DNA from: Saccopteryx bilineata
Taxonomy: Eukaryota; Chordata; Mammalia; Chiroptera; Emballonuridae
DNA length: 64,000 nucleotides
Direction of reading: 5' to 3'
NCBI RefSeq assembly: GCF_036850765.1
Contig: NC_089494.1
Location: 4,610,177-4,674,176, forward strand
The notes under the pieces were generated by a model. It did no database searches and had not been told where the DNA came from. It saw only the letters and a list, made by a program, of their open reading frames with translations. The position numbers and the translations under genes were made by a program. Positions 849-61,918 of this stretch are shown here, in pieces. The first letter of the stretch is position 1, and each line of letters starts with the position of its first letter.

Positions 849-1227
849 GGCCCTGGCCGGTTGGCTCAGTGGTAGAGCGTCAGCCTGGTGTGCAGAGGTC
901 CCGGGTTCGATTCCCGGCCAGGTCACACAGGAGAAGCACCCATCTGCTTCTCCACCCCTCCCCCTCTCCTTCCTCTCTGTCTCTCTCTTCCCCTCCCGCA
1001 GCCAAGGCTCCATTGCAGCAAAGATGGCCCGGGCGCTGGGGATGGCTCCTCGGCCTCTGCCCCAGGCGCTAGAGTGGCTCTGGTCCCGACAGAGCGACGC
1101 CCCGGAGGGGCAGAGCATCGCCCCCTGGTGGGCGTGCCATGTGGATCCCGGTGGGGCGTATGCGGGAGTCTGTCTGTCCCTCCTCGTTTCCAGCTTCAGA
1201 AAAATACAAAAAAAAAAAAAAAAGAAA
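849..1227 (+). mobile_element. Bat tRNA-derived long SINE (type A), full length
   Basis: The head resembles a tRNA, with an A box at 862-872 and a B box at 904-914. It is followed by a CT-rich segment, a conserved body ('cagcttcagaaaaat') and an A-rich tail. A perfect 15-bp target duplication, AAGAAACACAAGACC, lies at 834-848 and 1228-1242, so insertion was by LINE machinery and fairly recent. The body holds one CTCF-like core, CGCCCCCTGGTGG, near 1119-1131. Open frames across this element on both strands are SINE sequence. Confidence 0.93.
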
Positions 1228-7739: not shown

Positions 7740-7864
7740 CAGAGCTTCCCGCGCTCACCCGGCCCTCGGCCTCCCCCTGGGCTCTCGCCCGGCCTTGCTT
7801 GGTAAGAAGCTCCGCAGTGCTCACTCGGCGGGGCAGCCGCGTGCCACGGCCCGGTGCGTGTGTA

Positions 7865-7902
7865 CACTCACGCGCGCGCACACCACACACACACGCGCAC
7901 AC
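7865..7902. repeat. Alternating CG/CA purine-pyrimidine tract
   Basis: A run of CACGCGCGCGCAC followed by (CA)n and a second CGCG core, about 70 bases inside intron 1. Alternating CG/CA DNA of this kind can adopt the left-handed Z form under negative supercoiling behind RNA polymerase. Confidence 0.7.
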
Positions 7903-7962
7903 CCCGTCGCGCCGGGGGCGCTGGCCTCCCCACGCTTTCCAGAAGCCCCGCGACGGCCGGGC

Positions 7963-7971
7963 CCTCACCTT
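7963..7971 (-). other. AGAP1: AGAP1 exon 1 splice donor
   Basis: Read on the minus strand, the exon ends AAG and the intron begins GTGAGG, a strong U1-type donor. It falls exactly where the AGAP1 protein match stops, which fixes the exon boundary. Confidence 0.92.
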
Positions 7972-8131
7972 CGATGGCAATGACGTGTTCCCGGATCTGA
8001 TTCTGCAGCACCGGCTCCTCCACGCGCTCCAGCAGCTCGTAGATGGAGTAAATGTTGGGATGGACCGACTCGAAGCGCTGGATCTCGGCCCGGATGGCAG
8101 CCGAGTTGGCCAGCTGCTGCTGGTAGTTCAT
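7969..8131 (-). CDS. AGAP1: AGAP1 coding exon 1 (N-terminal 54 codons plus one base)
   Basis: The minus strand encodes a protein starting MNYQQQLANS, followed by VHPNIYSIYELLERV and ending REHVIAIE, which I recognise as the N-terminus of AGAP1. AGAP1 is a multidomain Arf GTPase-activating protein (GTPase-like, PH, ArfGAP and ankyrin domains) that acts on Arf1 and binds AP-3 on endosomes. Only the part before the GTPase-like domain is here. The ATG (complement of 8129-8131) has a good Kozak context, CACCATGA with A at -3. The frame runs 163 bases to a GTGAGG donor and leaves a phase-1 junction, so the next codon is split; this fits the aspartate that follows in known AGAP1. The frame stays open past the donor to about 7868, but that part is intronic and does not look like AGAP1. 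The paralogues AGAP2 and AGAP3 differ here, so the assignment is firm. All other exons lie outside the window, beyond position 1. Confidence 0.95.
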
Positions 8132-8920
8132 GGTGCAGGCGCCGCGCCTGGAGCCGCACGCCCCCCGCCGCCGCCGCCCCGCGCCCCGGGGCTCGCGGGC
8201 CGCCGAGCCCGGGGCACCGCAGCCCCTAGGGAACCGGGCCCGCCGGCGGCTGGCGGAGGAGGCGCAAGAAGAAAGGAGCGGGCAGAGCAGGCGAGGGGCT
8301 GGCCCGCGGACTCAGTTCATGGCCGGGACGCGCGGCCGGCGAGCGAGCGGGCCCCGGCGCCCCGGGTCAGCGGGCCCCCATGGAGCGCGCCGCGGCGGGC
8401 ACGGCTGGCCCCTCGAGGAGGCTCGCTTGGGCGCCTTCCTGCGCCGCAGCCGATTCCAGCCTTAGGCGCTGCCCCGGCGAGCAGCCATTAAAGCCCAGGC
8501 GGCCGCCGCGCTCTGAGCGCCGGGGCCGAGGACCGGCCCCCGGGCAGTGGCCGCGCCGCTCCGGGCTCCGGGCCGCGGCGAGGGTCCGCGCGCTGCGTGC
8601 TGCGCCGTCCGGCGCGCCGGGGCCCCCGCGCCGAGCCCGCCGTGCGTCGCCCGCTGAGCCGGGACCGAGCCGCAGGCGCTGTGCAAGCCGCGGAGCCCGC
8701 TATCGGTGCCGCCTGCCGCCGGCCGCCTTCCCGGCCAGCCCCCTCCCTGGCACGCAGGGCTCCGGCCCACGTCGGCCCCGCCTCTGCCCCGCCTGCCCGC
8801 GCGCTCGCCGCCCTCCAGCCGCCGCCGCCGCCACTGCCGCCGCTGCGTCCTCCGCGGCGCTTCCCAGCGCGCCGGATCCCGGGGAATTGCGCCAGGCTCC
8901 GCCCCGCGCCGGCCTCTGGG
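8132..8920 (-). promoter_or_regulatory. AGAP1: AGAP1 5' UTR and core promoter region (boundaries inferred)
   Basis: This lies directly upstream of the AGAP1 ATG on the minus strand and inside the CpG island. The transcription start cannot be read from the sequence. If the ZNF143-type site near 8930 is a proximal promoter site, the start probably falls between about 8500 and 8900, giving a 5' UTR of several hundred bases. Divergent transcription toward higher coordinates is possible but unsupported. Confidence 0.6.
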
Positions 8921-8922
8921 CT

Positions 8923-8940
8923 TCCTGGGACTTGTAGTTC
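8923..8940 (-). promoter_or_regulatory. ZNF143/Staf-type (SBS) promoter motif
   Basis: The minus strand reads GAACTACAAGTCCCAGGA, matching the known ACTACAANTCCCAGNATGC site bound by ZNF143, often with THAP11. Such sites sit within about 100 bases of transcription starts in CpG-island promoters, which fits the location upstream of AGAP1. Confidence 0.6.
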
Positions 8941-9190
8941 GCGCCGCGTCGGAGCCCTGCGGGGACAACGCGGAGGGGGCGCGAGGAGCCCGTTGCCCCG
9001 CGCGCAACCGATCCCGGGGAGCGAGGGCGCGGGACCTCCCCGCCCACCGACCTCCGGAGCCGCCCGGCCCCTGCCCCAGGCCTCTCTGCGGGCCCCCAGC
9101 GCTTCCCAGCGGGCTCCTGCGCCTCGGGACCCGGGAGGCACTGCGCGCCTCCGCCCGCCGCGGTTTTGTTTGTTTCCAGGCAGCTGGTTC

Positions 9191-10145
9191 AAAAAGCCTT
9201 TGCGACTCTCCGGTCTACCCTAACGGCAATTTGTCATCCCTGCTTTATTTACTTGTTTATTTTTTTTCTTTTTTTAACTTTCTGCCTTTTCTGAAAGATA
9301 CGAATGCTCCCTCGGGGCCGTGAGTGTTCGCACTCCGCGAGTGAACTGAAGTTTAGAAAAGGATGCGAGCTAGGTGCGATGAAATACCACGGCGGCTTCC
9401 TAAGCATCCTTTACCTTTAAAAAGAAAAAAAAAATAGATATAGATCTCAAGCTGCAGCCTCTAGAGCGCTGCCATCTGCTTCGCATGGGTCCCCAGCCAC
9501 TTGCTTGTCTGCCCCCACCCCCAACCCCCGCGCAGCTCAGCCCCCACCCCGGGGACTCCGCGGAGCTGGGTCGCACTGCAGCAGCGGCACCAGTGCGCAG
9601 GGCTCGCCCACAGGTTTGAGGGCAAAATGACCCTTGGGTAAATGTGCCTGGTTGGTGCGCCCCGGCCGAGTCCCTGCCCCCACCCATCCTTTGCAAACAA
9701 GTCAGCAGCTCTTGACATCCCTGATTAAAGCCAGCTGAGGCTTCACCTGGTCCACGTGAAGCCTGCGCATGGCTTATGCACCCAGGTAGCCAGCCTTGTT
9801 CGGCTGCGGTCTCTGGGGCTCACAATTCCCCAGACAAATGTACCGGAACATCTTCTGCATTCAGGGCCTCTGTGCCCCAGTCCCCAGTCCCGAGACCCAG
9901 CAGGGTCCCTGACACAATTAAGCCAAGTTCATCTCTCCATCTGCTTTACACTGATCATGAGGAACCCTGGGAACTGAGAGAGGCCTTGCGTGTGGCCTCA
10001 TTTTCCTTGACCATGAGCAGTCATCGATCACTCCACTTCCTTGCGCTAAGACCACGCACACCCAGGCTCCCCAGGCTTTCCCACGACCTTCCCGGCTTCT
10101 CAGTTCCTGGTGTGATTCCTTCTTGCTTCCCTAACCTCTGAGAAA
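9191..10145. other. Upstream flank of AGAP1 CpG island, no gene seen
   Basis: Just outside the island is an AT-rich T-run near 9250-9275, then mixed single-copy sequence with an A-run near 9420. No coding or structured RNA signal is visible. Confidence 0.45.
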
Positions 10146-16572: not shown

Positions 16573-16735
16573 GCCCTGGCCAGAGAGCTCGGTTGGTTGG
16601 AGCACCACCCCAAAGCACAAAAGTTGCTGGTTCGATCCCCGGTCAGGGCCCATACAGGAACAGATCAATGATCCTGTCTCTCTCTCTTTCTCTTCCTGTC
16701 CCTCTAAAATCAAGAAAATAAACATTTAAAAAAAC
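16573..16735 (+). mobile_element. Short bat tRNA-derived SINE (VES-like, type D)
   Basis: The head 'gccctggccagagagctcggttggttgg', the B box GGTTCGATCCC and the tail 'cctctaaaatcaagaaaataaa' are typical of the short bat SINEs. Flanks 'aaatg-tttt..gtca' are similar on both sides, a decayed target duplication. Confidence 0.8.
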
Positions 16736-21470: not shown

Positions 21471-21808
21471 GGGTCTCACGAGGTCCACGCTGAGACGGCT
21501 CCTGTCTTTCCAGCGTCGTGGCTTCATCCTCACCCGGTGCTTTCTCCCCAGCAGCTCGCAGGCCCCGAGGACGACCGCCAGCCGGCGGGCGGGAAAGCAC
21601 GGGGGCAGCCAGTCCCCAGCTGTCCGTGTCTCTGGTCTTTTAACTTCTGTCCAGCGTATCTTTAGGAAGTGACATCACAGGAGCACCCACTGTATACCCT
21701 GAAGACAACCGTGGGAGTCATAGCTTTCGGAGTGTGAAACATAAGTACTCGGCAACGTGACACCGGCCGACAGCAGGAACGGCAGCGGTGGACTCGCTGA
21801 GCCCCAGG
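21471..21808. other. Short intergenic stretch between LTR and minisatellite
   Basis: A GC-rich part near 21530-21610 is followed by ordinary sequence. No gene seen. Confidence 0.4.
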
Positions 21809-21811
21809 GCC

Positions 21812-22185
21812 GGGGGCGGGGCATCCCAACTCTACCCAGGAGGGCTGGGGGGGATCCCAACTCCACCCAGGAGGGCCGGGGGGGCATCCCAACTCTACCC
21901 AGGAGGGCTGGGGGGGGCATCCCAACTCTACCCAGGAGGGCTGGGGGGGATCCCAACTCTACCCAGGAGGGCTGGGGGGGGCATCCCAACTCTACCCAGG
22001 AGGGCTGGGGGGGGATCCCAACTCTACCCAGGAGGGCTGGGGGGGCATCCCAACTCTACCCAGGAGGGCTGGGGGGGATCCCAACTCTACCCAGGAGGGC
22101 TGGGGGGGGCATCCCAACTCTACCCAGGAGGGCTGGGGGGGATCCCAACTCTACCCAGGAGGGCTGGGGGGGATCCCAACTCTAG
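21812..22185. repeat. ~32-bp G-rich minisatellite, 12 copies
   Basis: Tandem units of the form GGG-G(C)ATCCCAACTCTACCCAGGAGGGCTG, 31 to 33 bases long. Length differences come from the G run (six to eight G) and from a GCATCC/GATCC alternation. The last copy is cut short. The plus strand is strongly G-rich at each unit junction. Confidence 0.95.
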
Positions 22186-22195
22186 GGCTGGCAGG

Positions 22196-23256
22196 GATGT
22201 GGAAAACACAGTTCTCTAACCTGTGCCTTAAAAAGGCAAAATGCAACATTTTGTGTACGTTCTCATTCAAAAACGAGAAAAAAAATGTATCCATGTGAAG
22301 GGAGAGGGTAGAAAAAACAAGAAGCCATGATTTCATGGGTTAAAGTGGTGGGATGTGAGGGAATTTGAAAAATGAGAACATTTTCCCTCATCCTTGGAGT
22401 TCCATTGTTTCTACCGAGGACAAAACAAGGCTTGTCCTTGCCACTCAGTGACCTTGGCAGCGCCAGCCCGGGGGTCTGCCCCACGCTGAGTGTCCCGGCC
22501 CACGAGTGGCCTGCCGTGCCCTGGGCCCAGGGGGCTGTCCTTTACAACAGAAGAAAACAGGCAGTTGTCACAGGAACCGGCCCTCCACAGCAGGGTGACC
22601 GTCCCCACAGGCCCCGGCCGTCCGCCACGCTCCTCTCCGAGAGCCTCACACCTGAGCTCACCTCTGGTTAACAGGGAAACCTGCGTGAAGCCCCACGCCC
22701 AGACCAGCCGCAGTCTTCCACTGGCCGGCTGTCTCTCTCCGCGGGGGTCACGTGGTTGGTTCTCGATGACCACATTCCCTGGAACCAGATCCTCCTCTGA
22801 GTCAGAGCGGGAGGCTCTCGCCAAGTGTCCGGTGGCCGGTGGCTGGCGTTAGGTGATACCCGGCCTGGCGTCCTGACATCGAGCTCTCGGGAGCGGGTGG
22901 TTTTGGCTTTCCCCACCCTGCTTTCAGCGGGTGCGGGCGCTTTCTTCTCAGAGCCTCGAAGCTCATCCTGGTCCCTTTGTCCGCCTCCCTGGGCGCGGAC
23001 TGCGCTCTGGAATTAAAGTTAGGGAGGAGGCGATGACCATATTTTCCATTTCTACAGCACTTTTTAAAATCAATTTTTGAAGCTATTTCCTCTCTAATAG
23101 AAACGAAGGAATGCATCTGCGAGGAACAAACAGCACAGAGCGGTCTGAGGAGAAAAGTAAATCCACGCTCCGCCCACCAGTTGGGAGGGATTACTAACCG
23201 CCCAGCGGAGGCTGTGTCTACGCATGTTTGCATATGTACGAAACCAACATGTGTAC
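22196..23256. other. Intergenic DNA, no gene supported
   Basis: A moderately AT-rich start and a GC-rich middle (22440-22900). No family match for any open frame. Confidence 0.4.
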
Positions 23257-23267
23257 ACTCTATGTCT

Positions 23268-23641
23268 TTTTTACTTTTACTTTTTATTTTTCTTAAGTGA
23301 GAAGCAGGGAGGCAGAGGAGAGACAGACTCCCACATGCATCCTGACTGGATCCACCTGGCATGCCCTCTATGGGGCAATGTTCTGCCCATCTGGGGCTAT
23401 TGCTCTATTGTTTGGCAACCGAGCAATTTTAGCACCTGAGGCAAGGCCGTGGAGCAGCCTCAGCGCCCCAGGGCCAACTTGCTTCAACCAAGCAGGAGGG
23501 GAAGAGAGAGAAAAAAGAGAGAGGGGGAGGGGGTAGAGAAGCAGGTGGTCACCTCTCCTCTGTGTGCCCTGACCGGGAATCGAACCGGGGACACTCACAC
23601 ATGAGGTTAACACTCTACCTCTGAGCCAGCCAGCCAGGGCC
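23268..23641 (-). mobile_element. Bat long SINE (type A), older copy
   Basis: The reverse complement carries the tRNA-like head ending at 23641 with B box GGTTCGATTCC, the CT-rich segment and the conserved body. The target duplication is imperfect, ACTCTATGTCT against ACTCTACATCT. The CTCF-like core has decayed to 'ccctctatggggcaat' near 23363-23378. Confidence 0.9.
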
Positions 23642-24546: not shown

Positions 24547-24910
24547 AGCGGGCTTGCTCAACAAGAACTTTCTGTGATGGTGGGATGTTTCGTGTGGTCC
24601 GAGATGGTAGTCCCTTGCTCCATGGGGTCTGCGGGCGCTTGAAATAGGCCTGATGAGTGTTTATTTTTATTTAATTTTAAGTATTATTTACTTTAGTGAG
24701 GAGGAGTGGGGAGAGAAAGGAAGGAGGAGCCAGAAGCATCGACTCCCACTTGTGCCCTGACCAAGTAAGCCCGGGGTTTCGAACCAGCGACCTCAGCATT
24801 TCAGGTTGACGCTTTATCCACTGCGCCACCACAGGCCAGGCACTTTTATTTAACTGTAGTAAATTTAGATGAAAGAGCCACGTGTGGCTAGTAGCTACTG
24901 CTTTGCAAAC
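24547..24910 (+). mobile_element. Non-autonomous hAT element interrupted by a SINE
   Basis: The left part, 'caagaactttctgtgatggtgggatgtt' and 'gcgcttgaaataggcctgatgag', and the right part, 'agagccacgtgtggctagtagctac', match the known mammalian hAT family whose copies read '..caatagaactttctgcgatgatggaaatgtt..' and '..agccacatgtggctagtggctac'. The two halves are separated by the SINE below. Confidence 0.6.
24682..24841 (-). mobile_element. Short bat SINE (type B) nested in hAT
   Basis: The antisense tRNA head 'ctttatccactgcgccaccacaggccaggc' and the B box complement are clear. Flanks share about 15 bases of 'ttttatttaa-t-tag'. Confidence 0.85.
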
Positions 24911-29127: not shown

Positions 29128-29850
29128 CCTCTGATCCTGGCTTCCGCTGGTGGAGTACTTACTGTGAGCGCTACGGAGAAGGTCTCTGGTGCTAAGCGGC
29201 GTTTGGCTGGCTTTCCCGATGATGTCGTTTATGCATGATGCTTCAAGGGCTTCCCTGGGTACGGAGGGCAGGCCCATGATCGCAATCAGTGCTCTTCATT
29301 GAGTCATAAAACCTCCACACCAGTGTGTAAAAAAATACAACACAGAGGGTCCTGATTAGTAATTGAACTAGTAAGCTCTTAAAAAAAAAAAATCTGTTCT
29401 CCACAAATCTCGGATTCCTCCTAACCACCGGCCTCTGGTCCGAAGGAGTTGCGGTCCTTGTCCCCTCGGTGTCCCTATGTCCTCCCCCTGACAGGAAAGG
29501 CATTTCCCCTTGAGAGCCCACGCAGCCCTCTTCCTTCCGCATTCCGGCCCCTTTAATTATGATGCTTTGTCACCAGCTCCTATGCTGTTTCCTGCACGAA
29601 CAGACCAACGGCTTCGCTCTTATCGCCACTCCTGACAGCACGTGATGCTGGGCTGTGTCCCCTGATGGGGGTGGTTCCCCCCAGTGTTTCTGGAACACTC
29701 CATCTACCTCGTCTCCTTTGTCTGGCCCTCATGGTGTCCCGTGCGGGCATTGCACACGAGCCAGTGGCGGCGGCCAGGGTGACAGACGTGACTCGAGAGC
29801 CACGCACGGGCCAGCAGCCTCCCCTCCAGGGTCACCTTTTCCTTCCCCTT

Positions 29851-30174
29851 TGCAAGACGGGACCCCAGACTTGCCCCTGTCAGTCTCTCCCAGTGGCTGG
29901 GCGTGTAGGAGGGAGTTCCCAGGTTGCTGTCTGCAAGACGGGACCCCAGACTTGCCCCTGTCAGTCTCTCCCAGTGGCTGGGCGTGTAGGAGGGAGTTCC
30001 CAGGTTGCTGTCTGCAAGACGGGACCCCAGACTTGCCCCTGTCAGTCTCTCCCAGTGGCTGGGCGAGTAGGAGGGAGTTCCCAGGTTGCTGTCTGCAAGA
30101 CGGGACCCCAGACTTGCCCCTGTCAGTCTCTCCCAGTGGCTGGGCGTGTAGGAGGGAGTTCCCAGGTTGCTGTC
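29851..30174. repeat. 81-bp tandem repeat, 4 near-identical copies
   Basis: Units begin TGCAAGACGGGACCCCAGAC and start at 29851, 29932, 30013 and 30094. Differences are only a few bases, so the array is recent or homogenised. Being 27 codons long, the unit keeps long frames open on both strands; the resulting 27-residue peptide repeat is not a known protein. Confidence 0.95.
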
Positions 30175-30645
30175 TTCAGGTCTTTTCCAGGGGAGACGCC
30201 CCCCAGCATCCGGCTTGGAATTGAGGACCCGCAAGCCCATGCCTGGGGGCTGTTAGAAGGAGGGGACGGGGTCTCCGCCCCCATAGCACAAACACACGCT
30301 GGACCTCCCCGTCTTCAGGAGGGACCTTGCCCTCCATGAAGCTGGGGCCACTTGCTTCCCTCTCTCGGCGGGTCCACTTCTGGGCTTCGCAGGCTGGGAA
30401 GGAGCACCTCCTTACCCAGGTCTCATCAGTCCGGCTCTGACCCCTGACCCAGCCCGTGTCTGGAGGTGCTGGGTGCCCCCAGTTCCGAGGCCTTTCGGGG
30501 ATCCTGCGCCCTGTGCTCAGCCTTCTCCCGGCCTGCGCGCGCTGTCTCAGCTCTGCTGGGTCAGTACCACTCGCGGTCTGCGTTCCAAAGTCCAAGCCGC
30601 ACGGCTGCTGTCGGTCTGCCCTTCAGCAACCCTTTCCCTATAGTT
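30175..30645. other. Intergenic DNA, no gene seen
   Basis: GC-rich single-copy sequence without recognisable elements. Confidence 0.4.
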
Positions 30646-31225
30646 GACTCTGTGGTAATCAAGTTAGATAATCAACTATTGTTTTGGATATTCAAACTGT
30701 TCCCATTTTCTGTCACTATAAAGAAGCTGTATTAAATAGCTTTATATATATATATATATATGCTTATATAGCTCTTGGACTATTTATTTATTTATTTTTA
30801 TGGAAGACAGAGACAGAGAGTGACAGAAGAGGGACAGAAAGTGACAGACAGGAAGGGAGAGGGATGAGAAGCATCAAATCTTTGTTGCAGCACCTTAGTT
30901 GTTCATTGATTGCTTTCTCATATGTGTCTTCACCAGGGGACTATAGCAGAGTGAGTGACCCCTTGCTCAAGCCAGCGACCTTGGGCTCAAGCCAGCAACC
31001 CTTTGGCTCAAGCCAGCAACCATGGGGTCATGTCTATGATCCCACGCTCAAGGCAGAGATTTCAGGGTTTCAAATCTGGGTCCTCTGCATCCCAGTCCGA
31101 CGCTCCATCCACTGTGCCACTGCCAAGTCAGGCTCTTGGACTATTTCTTAAAATAGATTCTTGTCAGAGAAATTGCTGGATACACATATCCACATACATT
31201 TTACTGTATATGATAAATATGTATC
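30646..31225 (-). mobile_element. L1 fragment interrupted by a SINE
   Basis: The left part 'ggatattcaaactgttcccattttctgtcactataaagaagctg' and the right part 'cttaaaatagattcttgtcagagaaattgctgga' form adjacent pieces of the usual antisense L1 text. Between them sits a SINE with a perfect duplication. A (TA)n run lies near 30745-30762. Confidence 0.55.
30786..31131 (-). mobile_element. Bat long SINE of type C
   Basis: The antisense head 'gctccatccactgtgccactgcc' lies at the right end, followed inward by three or four copies of a 21-base 'gctcaagccagcgacctt' motif and an AG-rich tail at the left. A perfect 15-bp target duplication GCTCTTGGACTATTT lies at 30771-30785 and 31132-31146. Confidence 0.92.
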
Positions 31226-31238
31226 AAAAGACTTATGA

Positions 31239-31639
31239 GGCCCTGGCTGGTTGGCTCAGTGGTAGAGCGTCGGCCTGGCGTGCAGAAGTCCTGGGTTCGA
31301 TTCCCAGCCAGGGCACACAGGAGAAGCACCCATCTGCTTCTCCACCCCTCCCCCTCTCCTTCCTCTCTGTCTCTCTCTTCCCCTCCCGTAGCCGAGGCTC
31401 CATTGGAGCAAAAGATGGCCCAGGCGCTGGGGATGGCTCCTTGGCCTCTGCCCCAGGCACTAGAGTGGCTCTGGTCGCAACAGAGCGACACCCAGGAGGG
31501 GCAGAGCATCACCCCCTGGTGGGCAGAGCGTTGCCCCCTGGTGGGCGTGCCGGGTGGATCCTGGTCGGGTGCATGCGGGAGTCTGTCTGACTATCTCTCC
31601 CCATTTCCAGCTTCAGAGAAATAAAAAAAAAAAAAAAAA
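31239..31639 (+). mobile_element. Bat long SINE (type A), young copy with two CTCF-like cores
   Basis: The tRNA-like head has a fully complementary acceptor stem (GCCCTGG with CCAGGGC) and T stem. Target duplication AAAAGACTTATGA/AAAAGGCTTATGA lies at 31226-31238 and 31640-31652. CTCF-like cores lie at about 31511-31522 and 31532-31544. The A-run at the end is long and pure, a sign of youth. Confidence 0.93.
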
Positions 31640-31679
31640 AAAAGGCTTATGAAAGTATATACCTGAGATAGTCATACAG

Positions 31680-33909: not shown

Positions 33910-34294
33910 TTTGTTTTTTTGGGGGTTTTTTTTGTATTTTTTCTGAAGCTGGAAACGGGGAGGCAGTCAGAGAGACTCCCGCATGTGTCCAACCGGGTTC
34001 CACCCAGCACGCCCACCAGGGGGCGATGCTCTGCCCATCTGGGCGTCACTCTGTTGTGACCAGAGCCACTCTAGCGCCTGAGGCAGAGGCCACAGAGCCA
34101 TCCTCAGTGCCCGGGCCAACTTTGCTCCAATGGAGCCTCGGCTGCGGGAGGGGAAGAGAGAGACAGAGAGGAAGGAGAGGGGGAGGGGTGGAGAAGCAGA
34201 TGGGCGCTTCTCCTGTGTGCCCTGGCCGGGAATCGAACCCGGGACTTCTGCACGCCAGGCCGACACTCTACCACTGAGCCAACCAGCCAGGGCC
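33910..34294 (-). mobile_element. Bat long SINE (type A) with an intact CTCF-like core
   Basis: The reverse complement is a full-length type A SINE with head ending at 34294. Target duplication TCAGTGCCTGTTTT/TCGGTGCCTGTTTT lies at 33896-33909 and 34295-34308. The core CCACCAGGGGGCG is on the plus strand at 34013-34025. Confidence 0.93.
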
Positions 34295-35524: not shown

Positions 35525-35812
35525 CAGTTAACCCCGGGCACCCCTCTCTTCCTGTGTATACAGTTGGCCCCGGGCACCCCTCTCTTCCTGTGTATACAGT
35601 TGGCCCCGGGCACCCCTCTCTTCCTGTGTATACAGTTGGCCCCGGGCACCCCTCTCTTCCTGTGTATACAGTTGGCCCCGGGCACCCCTCTCTTCCTGTG
35701 TATACAGTTGGCCCCGGGCACCCCTCTCTTCCTGTGTATACAGTTGGACCCGGGCACCCCTCTCTTCCTGTGTATACAGTTGGACCCGGGCACCCCTCTC
35801 TTCCTGTGTATA
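35525..35812. repeat. 36-bp minisatellite, 8 copies
   Basis: Exactly eight contiguous units, CAGTTGGCCCCGGGCACCCC plus TCTCTTCCTGTGTATA. Only the first (TTAACC) and the last two (TTGGACC) differ, each at one or two bases. The unit is 12 codons, so frames stay open on both strands; these are not genes. Confidence 0.97.
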
Positions 35813-36073
35813 CATCTTTCCTGGCCCTTAGACCTCAGCTGCTCCTCAGTATTGTTTCAGATGCCTGCTAAACTGCCACCATTGCTCCCGTCTCTGAAAG
35901 AAATCTCTCTCTCCGGTTTAATCCTCCCAAGTCTGACTTAGCTGATTCCTTCTTGATTTTCTGAGCAGAGACTATTTTTAAAGGCACAGGTATTTCAAGC
36001 TTTTTGAATTTGCAACAATTTCATGGAGTTGTTTCACTTTAACCCAGCATTTGTTTCATTAGAGATTGCCCTT

Positions 36074-36200: not shown

Positions 36201-37111
36201 CTTTCTTTTTTTGTTACTAAACATCTACCACCCCCTGAAGGTGAATCACGTGGTCGGGTCTCTGAGGTCTAAAGCCAGGACCAGAGCCTTTGTAAATGAA
36301 TACATCCACAGCCAACTTGGACCCCGGGGAACCACATGATTCAGGCTCAGTCCCACCGGCTTTCTCGTGGGCAGGACCAGGCGGCATGGACCTGTCACCA
36401 CCGGCTCCCCAGGCTCAGGGCCACCTTCTAAAGCTGGAACGAACCCTCTGCGGTGAAGGCAGACTCGGTGGCCTCCCAGCTTACACGCAGAAAATGTTGT
36501 GCCCGTCAAGATCTAAGGTCTCCTCTAGCCTCAGCCTCACCTGCATCACAGGTGTGCGCGTTTAAACGTCAGCTGTGTCTGCGTAGCTCAAGGTTAAGCT
36601 GTAGCAGCCGGCAGGCCGCAGCTGCCCACGCCGCTCACGGGCGGCTAAGGCACCTGCTCGCTCCTGGTTGCGCTCACCTGCGCGGAGACGCAGGCCCCCA
36701 GGCAGCCCCCACCTCCCCTGACTTGGCTAGGTCCGTCGCAGCTGGGAAGCGTTTGCTAAGGTGTGAGTGGCCCGTGCCTGCTCAAGGTCAGGGCCTGCTG
36801 CCCTTCCTACTGAAATACAAAATGACCCAAAGCTGTCTGGACCAGAGATTTGACCAAGGTCAAAAATCTCACTTGGATCTTCCGAAAGCTGCCCCTTCCA
36901 GAAATCTGCCAGGCCTGCTCTCACTGAAGGCCCTCCTGACCCATGTTCTTTGCAACCCCAGAGGTCCTCCTGAACCTAATCGGGGCTGAGGGTTGCAGCT
37001 CAGCAGGAGAGCCACCTGCTCAGTCCCAGGCACAGGCAAGGGGACAGCGCCCCTCTGGCCGCAGGTGCGACTCTGGACCTGGACGTTGAGATGGGGAGGG
37101 GCCGACCAGAA
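36201..37111. other. Intergenic DNA, no gene supported
   Basis: A moderately GC-rich part around 36600-36720. Open frames of up to 178 codons have no recognisable domain and no splice context. Confidence 0.4.
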
Positions 37112-37363
37112 CCCCTGCTCTTTGGTGGCAGAAACAGGGTCGGGCCGGCTGCGCAAGCCGGTGCTCTTCCCCTCACTGCCCAGTCCGGTCACTGACCCCT
37201 GCTCTTTGGTGGCAGAAGCAGGGTCGGGCCGGCTGCGCAAGCCGGTGCTCTTCCCCTCACTGCCCAGTCCGGTCACTGACCCCTGCTCTTTGGTGGCAGA
37301 AGCAGAGGCGGGCTGGCTGCGCAAGCCGGTGCTCTTCCCCTCACTGCCCAGTCCGGTCACTGA
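37112..37363. repeat. 84-bp tandem repeat, 3 copies
   Basis: Units begin CCCCTGCTCTTTGGTGGCAG and start at 37112, 37196 and 37280. They are nearly identical apart from a few changes in the third copy. A 28-codon unit again leaves long open frames on both strands. Confidence 0.95.
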
Positions 37364-38524
37364 CCCCAGCTCCCTTGGGAAAAGTGACAGGCAGGAGGAG
37401 GAGGAACCAGAGTGTTTAGGGGAAATCCTGCTCGTGGAAACCAGCGCAGCCGTGGAAAAGCTTCTAAATGTGGTGGTGGTCGTCGTTATAACCATTGTCA
37501 CCCTGGAGGCGACATTGACTGCCTCTTGGGGTTTTACCCCCATATTGAGGTCATCACTGCTAAGTCCTAGGTTAGGTGGGCGTCACATCACCCGGGCACC
37601 TGAACTCCGGGATTTCCAAACGCTCTTATCTGCCGTGTTAACTCGAATGGCGCGCACGCCGCTCTTCCTCCTGCAATGCAATTAGCGGCTGTGACATTGG
37701 CGAAGGCTTCAATGTCAACCAAGTGTAATTTTAGAAATGAAATTCAGCAGAACACAAGCATCTTAACTCATCTGACCCCTTTGGCGGTCGGTCATAACCT
37801 TCGGAGAACTGACAACCGCAGTTAGAACCCTTTTCATTCTGTTCTGTGTCCTTGGCTTTGTGATCAAAGCACAGGGCAAAGGTGGCTTATTCGTTCCTGA
37901 CAGAAGTGGAGCCCCTACACCTGTTTTAAGTCATGGCGTTGGAGGAGGAGATCCATGATGTGCACCCCTGAGGAGTGTCCGTGAGCCCCAGGGTTACAGG
38001 ATTAACTGGGGGGGGGCATCTGGGAAATGGATTCTGCTGTCATTTCCGTGACACTTGTTGCTTCTCTCATGTATTTCCCAAGAGAAGGCTAAAATGAACC
38101 CAAGGGTGTTGAATTGAGATCAGAGGGATGAGTATGTAATCTCGTGATTTTATAGAGATATGTCGATGCAGAGACATATAGGTGTCTATATACACATGGG
38201 TTTCTCCATATACGTCTATTTTTCTGCTGAGAGAGCCTGGAAGCAATAACACCCCCAGCAGCACTGAGCACACCCCGTGCCCACATCTTGGTCTCTAAAC
38301 ACCATCGTCCCCAATGACAGGAGCCAGGGGAAGGTGCCAATCCCAACGCCAGGGCAGGGAAAATACAAAGATGAGCCTAGAACAACAGCTTGTAGTGTCC
38401 AAAAGGTAAGGAAGTGCTCGAAAAGGAGGAGTGCTCGCCGAAAGAACACAGGAATCACCACGAAGGAACCCCACGTGGCCAAAGCGGAAACATTGGAGCA
38501 ACGACATGGATGGTGATAGTATTG
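37364..38524. other. Intergenic DNA, no gene seen
   Basis: AT-richer from 37700. The stretch 37720-37870 is non-repetitive and could be conserved. A G run lies at about 38009-38015. Confidence 0.4.
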
Positions 38525-38539
38525 AAATTTCAACACATA

Positions 38540-38881
38540 GCCTGACCAGGCAGTGGCGCAGTGGATAGAGCGTCGGACTGGGATGCGGAAGACCCAGGTT
38601 TGAGACCCCGAGTTCACTAGCTTGAACGCGGGCTCATCTGGTTTGAGCAAAAGCTCACCAGCTTGAGCCCAAGGTCACTGGCTTGAGCAAAGGGTTAATC
38701 GGTCTGTAGCCCCACGGTCAAGGCACATATGAGAAGGCAATCAATGAACAACTCAGGTGTCACAGTGCACAACGAAAAACTAATGATTGAGGCTTCTCAT
38801 CTCTTCGTTCCTGTCTGTCTGTCCCTGTCTATCTCTCTCTCTGACTCTCTCTCTGTCTCTGTAAAATAAATAAATAAAAAA
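38540..38881 (+). mobile_element. Bat long SINE of type C, full length
   Basis: The head 'gcctgaccaggcagtggcgcagtggatagagcgtcgg' has a B box-like GGTTTGAGACC. Three or four copies of an internal 'gctcaccagcttgagc' motif follow, then 'tcaaggcacatatgagaaggcaatcaatg' and a CT-rich and AAATAAAT tail. Target duplication AAATTTCAACACATA/AAATTTAACACATA lies at 38525-38539 and 38882-38895. Confidence 0.92.
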
Positions 38882-45337: not shown

Positions 45338-48094
45338 GAAAGTTGTGCGTGAAAAGGTGTGTTCAAGCTCTCTTGTTTGCTCAGAGTAGTGATTCACTCC
45401 TCTCTCTCTCTCTCTCTCTCTGTCTTCCTATCGGTGGAAACCGTGGAGGGGAAGCTGTCGTCCTTGGTGGTAGAACTGCATTCCCTCTGCACCAGCACGA
45501 GCCCACACCCCGTAAACGCTGGGATGGGCCTGAGTCCCCTTCCAGGCCGACCTCTCCCCCAACCTTGACCTTCATCTGACCCCTACCCTGGAAGGCACCT
45601 GGCACTTGACCTATGCTTTCCGTATTATGGGTCCTGACTCTTGGTCGTGACATCAGCTGGGAGGGTTAGGATCTGCATGTTTTGTTGCGGGTTTTTTTTT
45701 TAGAGAAGTTAAATAGAATGCAGGAAATATTGGAGTACATTGTACTAAGTGAGGGGAACTAATATTTTACGAGACTCTGGTTTCGTTGGTGTACATGGTT
45801 TGCGGGCGGGGGTCTGTGTGTATATAGTGGGCTGCCATGTAAAACGTGTTTTTATTTACGGGTCATGGACATAAACGACGTCTGAGAAACAGGGGTCCAC
45901 CTGAGCCCCAGAATCTCCCCCCCCTCGTGCTGAGGTGATCCCGGCCGCAGAGAGGGGGTCGAAGGCCTGTCTTGGAGCTGTCCCAGAAGAGGACCCTCTC
46001 TGAGGTCACTCAGCCTGCCCCTCGCGCTGATCTGGCTCGCCCCCCCTCCTCCTCAGGACCGGGCTGGTTGGCCCCTGTCCTGCTCTGGTCGGCTCCAGTT
46101 TGTTGTAACCCTGCTGCCCCAACTTTGGCCTAGACCCCATGACCCCATGGCCACAGCTGCTGTCGCCAGGACGCCACCTGCCCCTCCCTGGAAGACGCGG
46201 CCGTGTCTGCTCTTGCAGGATCTGTGGTCTCCGCGTCCGGTCGCCCGCTGCCTCCACTTCCCTGGCTCGGTGCCCGCTGGCCCCTCTGGGCTGCGGGCGG
46301 CTCAATCCAATGGGTGTTCTTAGAGGTTGGGGACCCTGGGATCTGGGCCAGCCAGGGGCATCCTGGTTGATGAGAGAGGGTTGAATCTGGCACCAGGAGC
46401 CAGGTTGGCGGAGGGAGGGGGGTAAGGGGAGTCACACAGGGGGCTGATGTCGGAGGGGCTGACGTCACAGGGATTTGGGGTACGTTAGGTGAGCGTGTAC
46501 GTCAGCAGAGGAGAAACACAGGTGGAATCTGTGAGTAGGAGGAGGTAGTCAGAGGCCACGTCAGGGGCACTGGAGGCAGGGGGGTGGTGGGCAGGGACAG
46601 ACTGGGTGTCTGGCAGGAGCTCCGAGGGCGAGGTGAGCTGGCAGGCTGTCCGGCCGTCTCTGGCCGCCCGCTCCTGGGGGCTCACCTCTCTGATACTCCT
46701 CTGTTCAAACTGCGTTCCCTTCTGTCCCAAAGTTACTACCCAGGCCCTGCCGGGAGGTGCCCGCCCCGCCTGCTGGTGCTCACACTTGGAGTATCTTAAC
46801 CTAAAAGCTGGTGATCTGACCCGAGCTCTGAGTCCTTCTCAAAGGCCCTTGTCGAGGGAATTGAGGCAAACGGCTTCGGCACCCCCCGGAGCCCCTGAAT
46901 CTGACCCCAAAGGAAAGCCCCAGGTTATACCCAAACCACGAGGGGGCACTGGGCGAGGGCTCTGGGGCGTGGACCCCACACCTTCCGGGGACTCGGGGCC
47001 TCCCGCTCTCCACAGACGTGGGACCCCATCCCGCAGATAAAAGGAGGGCTCTGTCGCCAGCCTTGCGCGAGAATGCTCCCTGCTTCCCACGAGTGAGCGT
47101 GCTTCCGTTGGATGCGTCTGTGTACATTTTTCTCTTTGAAGCCAGAGCTCACAGAGCGTCATCTTTTATTTCCGTCACAACCAGCGGCCGGGCGCACAGG
47201 TGCTGAGGAACGGGACTGGGAAGCCAGGGACACGTGCTCACGCCTCACCATGGCTGCTCCCTTCCCTTTTAGCGTCTCCCTCAAGGCCCTGCGCCCTAGT
47301 CATCCCTGCAGATGAGTGTGAGTGCAGGGGGGGAGGGAGGAGGCGTGCAAGCACTTTGGGACCAGGGCGCAGGGACATAACTGAAGGGCTGTGTCTTCCC
47401 GTTTCATCAGGCGACCTACAGAGTTCTGGCTGAAGGGAGCTTCATGCAGCGGCTGCCCCAGCCGGGCAGCTGCACGTGACAGTGTCGGGAACACGGGGGG
47501 GGGGCAGCCGAGGGGCTGCCTGACCCCCGCCGTGCTCGGGCAAGTCACTGCCACGCCACCTGGGGTGGTCTGGACGTCGGGAGGCCAGACGAAACCCTGC
47601 TCAGTCTCCATCTTCCTGACCGAGCTCGGCCGGCCGCTTCACAGCTCTGCGATGCCACGTTGCTGCGTGACCCGGGCGGCCCTTCCATCGTGGGCATGTT
47701 GAGCCTGCGATTCCCTCTGGGTTCTAAGATTCTCCCGTGGGGAGGGCAGAGAGCCGGGCACAAGACGGAGATGCTGACCTCAGGCACGTCGCGGGAGGTG
47801 CCAGGGAAGGTCCGACCAGCCTGCGGCACCCGAACACTCTCTCCAGATGTCGGGGCGCTCAGCCACCCAGCTTCCTCTGCGTTCAGTGACGCCCCGCCCC
47901 TGAGCCCTTGACGAAAGTCTTCTTGATGAGGCTGAAGAGTTTTCTACGGAGGCTCAGCATTGCCCAGCTCACGCACAAGCATATCCGCTAAAGGCACCAC
48001 CGCGCGCCTTGGAAAAGTGACATGGAAATTGTGTGTGGCCTGAGGAAGTGGCCCGTGATCCGAATGGAGCCCAACAGTGAGGTATCTCCAGGTA
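45338..48094. other. Intergenic DNA, no gene supported
   Basis: A (TC)n tract lies at 45402-45421. The rest is mixed-composition, non-repetitive sequence with many short open frames and no recognisable families. A MIR-like segment cannot be excluded. Confidence 0.4.
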
Positions 48095-50986: not shown

Positions 50987-50997
50987 AAGAAATCGAG

Positions 50998-51187
50998 GCC
51001 CGACCTGTGGTGGTGCAGTGGATAAAGCGTCGACCTGGAAACGCTGAGGTCGTCAGTTCAAAACCCTGGGCTTGCCTGGTCAAGGCACATATGGGAGTTG
51101 ATGCTTCCTGCTCCTCCCTCCCCCTTCTCTCTCTTTCTCTCTCTCTCTCACTCTCTCTCCTCTCTAAAAATTAATAAAAAAAACCTT
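50998..51187 (+). mobile_element. Short bat SINE (type B), full length
   Basis: The head 'gcccgacctgtggtggtgcagtggataaagcgtcgacc' has B box-like AGTTCAAAACCC, followed by 'tggtcaaggcacatatgggagttgatgcttcctgctcctccc', a CT-rich run and an AATAAA tail. Target duplication AAGAAATCGAG/AAGAAGTCGAG lies at 50987-50997 and 51188-51198. Confidence 0.92.
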
Positions 51188-57585: not shown

Positions 57586-58132
57586 CCTTGTCTGGAAATA
57601 GGGCTTTTTTCAGATGTAAATAAGCCAAGAGGAGGTCCTACCGGATGGAGGTGGACCCTGCCTCCAATATGACTCCTGGACGTATATGAAGAGGAAAGTT
57701 GGGACACAAAGTCAAACAGGACAGACAGCCACGTGCAGATGGAGACAGAGATTGGAGTGACACCCCTTCAAGCCCAGTGATTGTTAGGGTTGCTGGCAAC
57801 CACCAGTTATTTTTTTTTAATTTTTTTTAATTATTAATTTTGAGAGAGGAGAGAGAGAGAGAGAGAGAAGGGGGAGGGAGGAGCAGGAAGCATCAACTCC
57901 CATATGTGCCTTGACCAGGCAAGCCCAGGGTTTTGAACCGGCGACCTCAGCGTTTCCAGGTCGACGCTTTATCCACTGCGCCACCACAGGTCAGGCTAAC
58001 CACCAGTTATTACAAGAGGCGGGAAGGTTTCCTCCCAAGGGCCTTTGGAGAGAGAGTCGTCCTGCTGACACCTCGATGTTGGACTTCCGTCCTCCAGAGC
58101 TGTGAGAGAAGAGATTCCTCTTCTTTTAAGTC
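57586..58132 (+). mobile_element. MaLR solitary LTR split by a SINE
   Basis: The left part has 'ggaaatagggcttttttcagatgtaaataagccaagaggaggtcc' and 'agacagagattggagtgacacc'. The right part has 'gacacctcgatgttggacttccgtcctccagagctgtgagagaagag'. Together they follow the MaLR LTR order on the plus strand. Confidence 0.75.
57812..57997 (-). mobile_element. Short bat SINE (type B) nested in MaLR LTR
   Basis: Antisense head 'gctttatccactgcgccaccacaggtcaggct', B box complement 'ttttgaaccgg' and an AG-rich tail. Target duplication AACCACCAGTTATT lies at 57798-57811 and 57998-58011, exact. Confidence 0.93.
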
Positions 58133-59967: not shown

Positions 59968-60367
59968 GGCCCTGGCTGGTTGGCTCAGCGGTAGAGCGTC
60001 GGCCTGGTGTGCGGGGGACCCGGGTTCAATTCCTGGCCAGGGCACACAGGAGAAGTACCCATTTGCTTCTCCACCCCCGCCTCCCCCTCCTTCCTCTCTG
60101 TCTCTCTCTTCCCCTCCCGCAGCCAAGGCTCCATTGGAGCAAAGATGGCCCAGACACTGGGGATGGCTCCTTGGCCTCTGCCCCAGGCGCTAGAGTGGCT
60201 CTGGTGGCGGCAGAGCGACGCCCTGGAGGGGCAGAGCATCGCCCCCTGGTGGGCAGAGTGTCGCCCCTGGTGGGCGTGCCGGGTGGATCCCGGTCGGGCG
60301 CATGCGGGAGTCTGTCTGACTGTCTCTCCCGGTTTCCAGCTTCAGAAAAATACACACACACACACAA
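59968..60367 (+). mobile_element. Bat long SINE (type A), young copy with two CTCF-like cores
   Basis: The tRNA-like head has paired GCCCTGG/CCAGGGC. A perfect target duplication AAAAAGTGTCAAAGGG lies at 59950-59965 and 60368-60383. CTCF-like cores lie at 60240-60252 and, lacking one C, at about 60262-60272. It ends in (CA)n then A. Confidence 0.94.
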
Positions 60368-61567: not shown

Positions 61568-61903
61568 GAGGTCCTGGGTTCGATTCCCGGCCAGGGCACA
61601 CAGGAGAAGCGCCCATCTGCTTCTCCACCTCTCCCCCTCTCCTTCCTCTCTGTCTCTCTCTTACCCTCCCGCAGCCAAGGCTCCACTGGAGCAAAGATGG
61701 CCCGGGCGCTGGGGATGGCTCCTTGGCCTCTGCCCCAGGCGCTAGAGTGGCTCTGGTCGCAACAGAGCGTCGCCTCGGAGAGGCAGAGCATCGCCCCCTG
61801 GTGGGCGGAGCGTCACCCCCTGGTGGGTGTGCTGGGTGGATCCCCACCGGGCGCATGCGGAAGTCTGTCTGACTGTCTATCCCCGTTTCCAGCTTCAGAA
61901 AAA
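61568..61903 (+). mobile_element. 5'-truncated bat long SINE (type A) with two CTCF-like cores
   Basis: The copy begins inside the tRNA-like head just before the B box, so the A box is missing. A perfect 15-bp target duplication AAAAAGTTAGAGTCT lies at 61553-61567 and 61904-61918, so the truncation occurred at insertion. CTCF-like cores lie at 61791-61803 and 61814-61826. Confidence 0.94.
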
Positions 61904-61918
61904 AAAAAGTTAGAGTCT

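What the first reader, a model, noticed from the sequence alone, without database searches (positions are those of the whole stretch)
31239..31639. Long bat SINE carries a near-consensus CTCF core, often duplicated
All well-preserved type A SINEs here contain CGCCCCCTGGTGG (complement CCACCAGGGGGCG), which fits the CTCF core CCASYAGRKGGCRS. Examples lie near 1119, 31511, 31532, 34013, 60240, 61791 and 61814. SINE-borne CTCF sites are established for rodent B2 and some other mammalian SINEs. I do not know of a description for this bat family. If bound, this family could have spread thousands of sites through the genome.
Basis: partly seen in the sequence, partly recalled or inferred. Interest (0 to 1): 0.78.

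Follow-up and report, generated by a model that had tools for sequence, protein, structure and literature searches.

The report
SINE that spreads CTCF sites
A jumping DNA element, probably of a bat, carries a near-perfect landing site for the chromosome-folding protein CTCF and has copied it to well over a hundred thousand places, sometimes several times within one element; whether the protein sits there is untested.

Summary
The window has seven copies of a ~400-bp tRNA-headed SINE. All five young copies, and neither of the two old ones, carry CGCCCCCTGGTGG or a one-step CpG-decay form. In the window's own 2.61-Gb genome the exact word occurs 152,560 times, against 95 for the word read backwards and 339 for another CTCF-like word two letters away. 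In 19 blind 10-kb samples, 23 of 27 CTCF-matrix hits of at least 16 bits lie in this SINE, which fills 6.3% of the bases. "Duplicated" means a 22-bp tandem unit: 15 of 24 young copies have two units, but only 6 keep both cores intact; one copy elsewhere has seven matrix hits in a row. The core looks ancestral and grew stronger, from 16.5 bits in the old consensus to 19.8 in the young. No sign of germline occupancy was found: the core CpG decays like a control CpG, 12.5% against 12.3%. SINE-borne CTCF sites are known in rodents, dog and opossum. This is a further case, with an internal array of sites. Binding is untested.

The parts
31239..31640 (+). Young SINE copy, full length, two 22-bp units
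   Evidence: Alignment of seven copies; 13-bp target-site duplication with one mismatch
31245..31314 (+). tRNA-like head of the SINE
   Evidence: ARAGORN; Rfam tRNA 40.1 bits over 31245-31310
31507..31525 (-). CTCF-matrix hit, first unit, 16.3 bits (core CpG decayed to CA on the + strand)
31529..31547 (-). CTCF-matrix hit, second unit, 18.4 bits (core CpG decayed to TG on the + strand), 22 bp from the first
849..1223 (+). Young SINE copy, one unit
   Evidence: 15-bp exact target-site duplication
1116..1134 (-). CTCF-matrix hit, 19.1 bits
33926..34294 (-). Young SINE copy, one unit
   Evidence: 11-bp exact target-site duplication
34010..34028 (+). CTCF-matrix hit, 19.1 bits
59968..60369 (+). 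Young SINE copy, two units, the second short of one C
   Evidence: 16-bp exact target-site duplication
60237..60255 (-). CTCF-matrix hit, 19.8 bits, best of the window
61568..61908 (+). Young SINE copy, 5'-truncated, two units
   Evidence: Match starts at base 47 of the query; 15-bp exact target-site duplication
61789..61807 (-). CTCF-matrix hit, first unit, 19.1 bits
61811..61829 (-). CTCF-matrix hit, second unit, 14.1 bits
53186..53575 (-). Old SINE copy, no CTCF-matrix hit of 10 bits or more
23268..23641 (-). Old SINE copy, no CTCF-matrix hit of 10 bits or more

Best explanation
It is a ~400-bp tRNA-headed SINE moved by LINE-1-type retroposition. Shown: tRNA-like head, A-rich end, target-site duplications, one 5' truncation. 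Near its 3' end, on the strand opposite to the SINE, it carries a near-consensus CTCF core. The core sits in a 22-bp unit that can be tandemly multiplied. Shown: the word is present at about 150,000 exact places, and the young consensus scores higher than the old one. Inferred: the core is ancestral and was strengthened; each insertion delivers an oriented CTCF site; CTCF binds a minority of copies left free of methylation and repressors; some of these stop cohesin and act as loop anchors whose direction is set by the SINE's orientation. Most copies stay closed through CpG methylation, H3K9me3 or ChAHP (ADNP-CHD4-HP1), as described for mouse B2.
For: Matrix hits of 14.1-19.8 bits at all seven places. 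152,560 exact words against 95 reversed and 339 for a comparable word. 23 of 27 hits of >=16 bits in blind samples are in the SINE. A hit of >=16 bits in 21 of 24 young copies. 20,170 pairs of intact cores within 30 bp, control 44. Score 16.5 in the old and 19.8 in the young consensus. Rodent, dog and opossum SINEs with CTCF words are bound (PMC3368268, section 10).
Against: No CpG protection: 12.49% decayed at the core, 12.29% at one control CpG, z 1.5; 0.27 against 0.13-0.43 at other CpGs in 24 copies. Only 6 of 24 young copies keep two intact cores, so the array is not generally maintained. Two flank positions disagree with the matrix. No upstream M2 motif was scored. No binding data.
Confidence: 0.62

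Rival explanations
1. Passenger: the word arose by chance in the SINE's GC-rich 3' part, was amplified with the family and is silent; CTCF binds few or none of the copies.
For: One ancestral coincidence plus amplification gives any count. No CpG protection. 1 of 4000 shuffles of the consensus reaches the score, so it is rare but not impossible for one family among many.
Against: A 19.8-bit site is normally competent for CTCF (established knowledge). The score is higher in the young than in the old consensus, though this could be chance. Rodent, dog and opossum SINE families with such words are bound.
Confidence: 0.2
2. The word is chiefly a docking site for the ChAHP complex (ADNP-CHD4-HP1), which keeps the SINE closed; CTCF binds little. 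The core CGCCCCCTGGTG fits the ADNP motif CGCCCYCTNSTG, which I recall and which no passage that I read prints, at all 12 positions.
For: ADNP and CTCF share B2 sites in mouse, and CTCF rises there when ADNP is lost (passages of PMC13061322, PMC11293393, PMC11288131). Lack of CpG protection fits closed copies.
Against: The CTCF score is strong in its own right. In mouse many ChAHP sites are also bound by CTCF, so the two are not exclusive. ADNP was not tested here.
Confidence: 0.13

Closest known systems
Rodent B2 (and B3) SINE-borne CTCF sites
   Same: A tRNA-derived SINE that carries a CTCF core through a genome in very many copies (PMC3368268, section 10)
   Different: B2-bound sites mostly have M1+M2 with 20-bp spacing; here several M1-type cores at 22-bp steps were found and M2 was not scored. 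Binding is shown for B2, not here. B2 sequence was not compared by tool.
Dog SINEC_Cf CTCF sites
   Same: Lysine-tRNA-related SINE of a laurasiatherian mammal with an M1-type core only
   Different: Well under a thousand bound events in dog. No tandem unit is mentioned in the passages that I read.
Opossum MAR1_Mdo CTCF sites
   Same: SINE with M1 only
   Different: MIR-family element; bound sites number in the hundreds
Ves SINE of bats
   Same: tRNA-derived bat SINE (PMC4436864 passages); head sequence similar as I recall
   Different: Shorter, with a different body, as I recall. No Ves consensus was compared by tool. The passages shown mention no CTCF site; that paper was not searched for the term.

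Membership tests
tRNA-derived SINE | tRNA-like 5' head with a pol III-type internal promoter region | tested here: met
   tRNA-like head called in 4 of 7 window copies by ARAGORN and Rfam; promoter activity not tested
tRNA-derived SINE | LINE-type retroposition: A-rich end and target-site duplications | tested here: met
   5 of 5 young window copies have duplications of 11-16 bp with at most one mismatch; the 2 old ones 10 of 12
SINE family that spreads CTCF sites | Near-consensus CTCF core in the family consensus | tested here: met
   19.77 of 26.1 bits in the young consensus; 1 of 4000 shuffles reaches it
SINE family that spreads CTCF sites | Genome-wide excess of the word, carried by the family | tested here: met
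   152,560 against 95 reversed; 0 exact words outside the SINE in window plus samples, of 20
SINE family that spreads CTCF sites | CTCF bound at the copies in cells | not testable with these tools
   No ChIP-seq or CUT&RUN data at hand; indirect test by CpG decay shows no protection
B2-type CTCF site (M1+M2) | Upstream M2 motif at about 20 bp from M1 | not tested
   No M2 matrix was available or typed
Ves SINE | Ves consensus sequence over head and body | not tested
   No Ves consensus was fetched or typed into a tool

The most novel reading that the evidence does not exclude
This one SINE family holds more near-consensus CTCF sites (about 0.2-0.5 million) than the rest of its genome together, and its 22-bp unit can grow into arrays of three to seven same-facing sites inside one element. 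The genome thus carries a very large CTCF sink plus ready-made multi-site barriers. The species must either silence them in bulk or fold its chromosomes with them, which makes it a natural experiment in CTCF titration and in how tightly packed sites stop cohesin.
Probability: 0.3. Interest if true: 0.85.

Novelty: new variant of a known kind. Interest (0 to 1): 0.6.

Why it matters
SINE waves are a known way for new mammalian CTCF sites to arise. Here a near-consensus core sits in a young family at about one exact word per 17 kb, and some copies hold arrays of same-facing cores at a fixed 22-bp step, closer than two CTCF proteins are likely to share (inference). One CTCF profile from this species would show how a genome copes with a large excess of strong sites: by methylation, ChAHP, SETDB1, or use.

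Tried and rejected
Chance: rejected on exact counts and on shuffles of the consensus. The 2-mismatch count in the window alone is not significant.

Old copies as core-free ancestors: my first reading, dropped. The consensus of the eight old copies has a core of 16.5 bits, though only 1 of 8 old copies itself has a hit of >=16 bits and several show no core at all. The ancestral state is therefore an inference.

CpG protection as a sign of germline CTCF: tested, not found. Only one control CpG was counted genome-wide.

Better survival of the core as a sign of selection: the exact 13-mer is intact in 16 of 24 young copies (0.67; median over all 13-mers of the consensus 0.46, ninth decile 0.67). 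The tandem unit gives it two chances per copy, so I do not read this as selection.

Related DNA in viral contigs: 0 matches for one 20-mer.

Literature: ten searches of an open-licence library. In their listings and in the passages read I saw no report of CTCF sites in a bat SINE. Listings were capped at 20 or so, and most subscription papers are not held, so this is not proof of absence.

Not obtained: genome counts of the second unit with one C missing, of triple arrays, and of the core within its SINE context.

Full report
What was checked. A BLAST of the 31239 copy against the window finds seven long copies of one ~400-bp element: the query itself, four others at 85.6-90.4% identity, and two at 70-74%, plus six weak partial matches to its 5' part. 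I call the first five young and the last two old. Rfam and ARAGORN find a tRNA-like head in four copies. All five young copies end in an A-rich stretch and are flanked by target-site duplications of 11-16 bp with at most one mismatch; the two old copies show 10 of 12 matching. The copy at 61568 lacks its first 46 bases yet is duplicated at its ends. This is a tRNA-derived SINE moved by LINE-1-type retroposition.

The word. CGCCCCCTGGTGG is exact at 4 of the 7 listed places and one CpG-decay step away at 3 of 7, including both places in the copy at the finding's coordinates. It gives 14.1-19.8 bits of 26.1 at these places. They are the window's top five hits and seven of the top eight; the other one, 17.5 bits at 46933-46951, is outside the SINE. 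The young consensus loses 5.7 bits at positions 3 and 17. 1 of 4000 dinucleotide shuffles of the consensus reaches its score. Counted with two mismatches, the window's 8 matches are not above chance.

Genome scale. The window lies in a genome of 2,612,309,609 bp. The exact word occurs 152,560 times; the same word read backwards 95 times. Another word that fits the CTCF consensus, two substitutions away (CGCCCTCTGCTGG), occurs 339 times, control 4. That is a 450-fold difference. A word of the same SINE about 54 bp upstream, GGCGCTAGAGTGG, occurs 94,671 times, control 3. I took 20 stretches of 10 kb at round-number places; one was all N and was dropped. In the remaining 188,640 readable bases, 23 of 27 matrix hits of >=16 bits, 20 of 21 of >=18 and 14 of 14 of >=19 lie in the SINE or its relatives, which fill 6.3% of the bases. 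Scaled up this gives about 319,000 sites of >=16 bits in the SINE (Poisson 95% interval 202,000-478,000) and about 374,000 copies of 300 bp or more (246,000-544,000). The samples hold 16 exact words where the genome count predicts 11. Of the 20 exact words in samples plus window, none lies outside the SINE. At a low threshold the SINE stands out less: of 54 hits of >=12 bits, 22 are outside it, against a mean of 13.1 hits in all in simulated sequence.

Copy by copy. Samples plus window gave 45 pieces, 34 of at least ~300 bp. I grouped the 34 by eye, from their best query and score, into 24 young, 2 intermediate and 8 old; the 11 shorter pieces were left out. A hit of >=16 bits is present in 21 of 24 young, 2 of 2 intermediate and 1 of 8 old copies. 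In the 34 copies all hits of >=10 bits are on the strand opposite to the SINE.

History of the core. The old consensus reads GCCCCCTAGTGGG (16.5 bits) and the young CGCCCCCTGGTGGG (19.8 bits). So the site seems ancestral and strengthened; with eight old copies, of which only some show a recognisable core, this is an inference. The unit GGCAGAGCATCGCCCCCTGGTG is 22 bp. Among the 24 young copies 15 have two units, 8 one and 1 none. In the 15, both 11-bp cores are intact in 6, the second has lost one C in 6, and it has other changes in 3 (my tally from the printout). Genome-wide there are 20,170 pairs of intact 11-bp cores with 0-30 bases between them, control 44 (most of the 100 pairs listed are at the 22-bp step), and 14,290 in a strict 22-bp form, control 0; overlapping pairs in arrays are counted each. 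Arrays occur: L029 is one SINE with seven matrix hits of 17.3-19.8 bits at 22-bp steps (six of them with the intact 11-bp core), and L030-L033 have three each. These five were picked because the listings showed arrays, so they say nothing about frequency.

Test for occupancy from sequence. If CTCF kept the site unmethylated in the germ line, its CpG should decay less. CA/(CA+CG) is 12.49% at the core (21,772 and 152,560) and 12.29% at one control CpG of the same SINE (13,268 and 94,671), z 1.5. In 24 young copies the core CpG has decayed in 0.27 and the other 25 CpGs in 0.13-0.43. So there is no protection. This speaks against occupancy of most copies in the germ line; it does not exclude occupancy of a minority or in somatic cells.

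Mechanism. Shown: a strong, oriented, mobile CTCF word in very many copies. Inferred: CTCF binds a minority of them. The rest would be held closed, as in mouse, where ChAHP competes with CTCF at B2 (passages of PMC11288131, PMC11293393, PMC13061322) and SETDB1-H3K9me3 with DNA methylation restricts access to a subset of SINEs (abstract of PMC11221086). The core also fits the ADNP motif as I recall it. The core's CpG lies at the position (C12) where, as I recall, methylation is tolerated by CTCF; no call tested that.

Compared with the known. Schmidt et al. 2012 (PMC3368268; passages, section 10) report B2 in mouse and rat mostly with M1+M2, dog SINEC_Cf with M1 only and well under a thousand bound events, and opossum MAR elements with hundreds. 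Choudhary et al. 2023 (PMC9902604, passages) cover human, mouse, dog and macaque. Kentepozidou et al. 2020 (PMC6945661, passages; authors recalled) report that in mouse the greatest fraction of transposon-borne CTCF sites is SINE-derived. Passages seen in bat papers (PMC4436864, PMC7547651, PMC10239488, PMC9446614) mention no such site; only the last two were searched for 'CTCF', with 0 and 1 occurrences, the one being an RT-qPCR target. What differs here is the abundance of the exact word and the tandem unit.

Limits. No tool named the species. The genome (2.61 Gb) is larger than the six bat assemblies tabulated in PMC10239488 (1.9-2.3 Gb). A sac-winged bat is my guess from genome size and large chromosomes only.

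Noticed in passing
L019:3700-3960 and 9680-9940; relatives in L014 (1892-2144), L018 and L024 (8376-8634): A second repeat, about 260 bp and 92-95% alike between copies, looks like a DNA transposon. It holds a palindromic CCACTAGTGG that scores 16.7 bits with the CTCF matrix in both L019 copies.
   Followed up: partly
46933-46951: A single CTCF-matrix hit of 17.5 bits (AAACCACGAGGGGGCACTG) outside the SINE; its surroundings match nothing else in window or samples. It may be an ordinary CTCF site.
   Followed up: partly
about 1628-2716, 21757-22219, 29655-30340, 35564-35941, 36869-37685: Several minisatellite-like stretches whose open frames translate into repeated peptides.
   Followed up: no
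about 7799-9323: Overlapping long open frames on both strands rich in Ala, Arg, Pro and Gly, as expected of a GC-rich promoter region. GC was not computed.
   Followed up: no
16573-16705, 24695-24840, 31065-31119, 38554-38608, 50997-51160, 57844-57983: Short, weak matches to the 5' part of the SINE (62-78% identity), probably another tRNA-headed SINE family.
   Followed up: no
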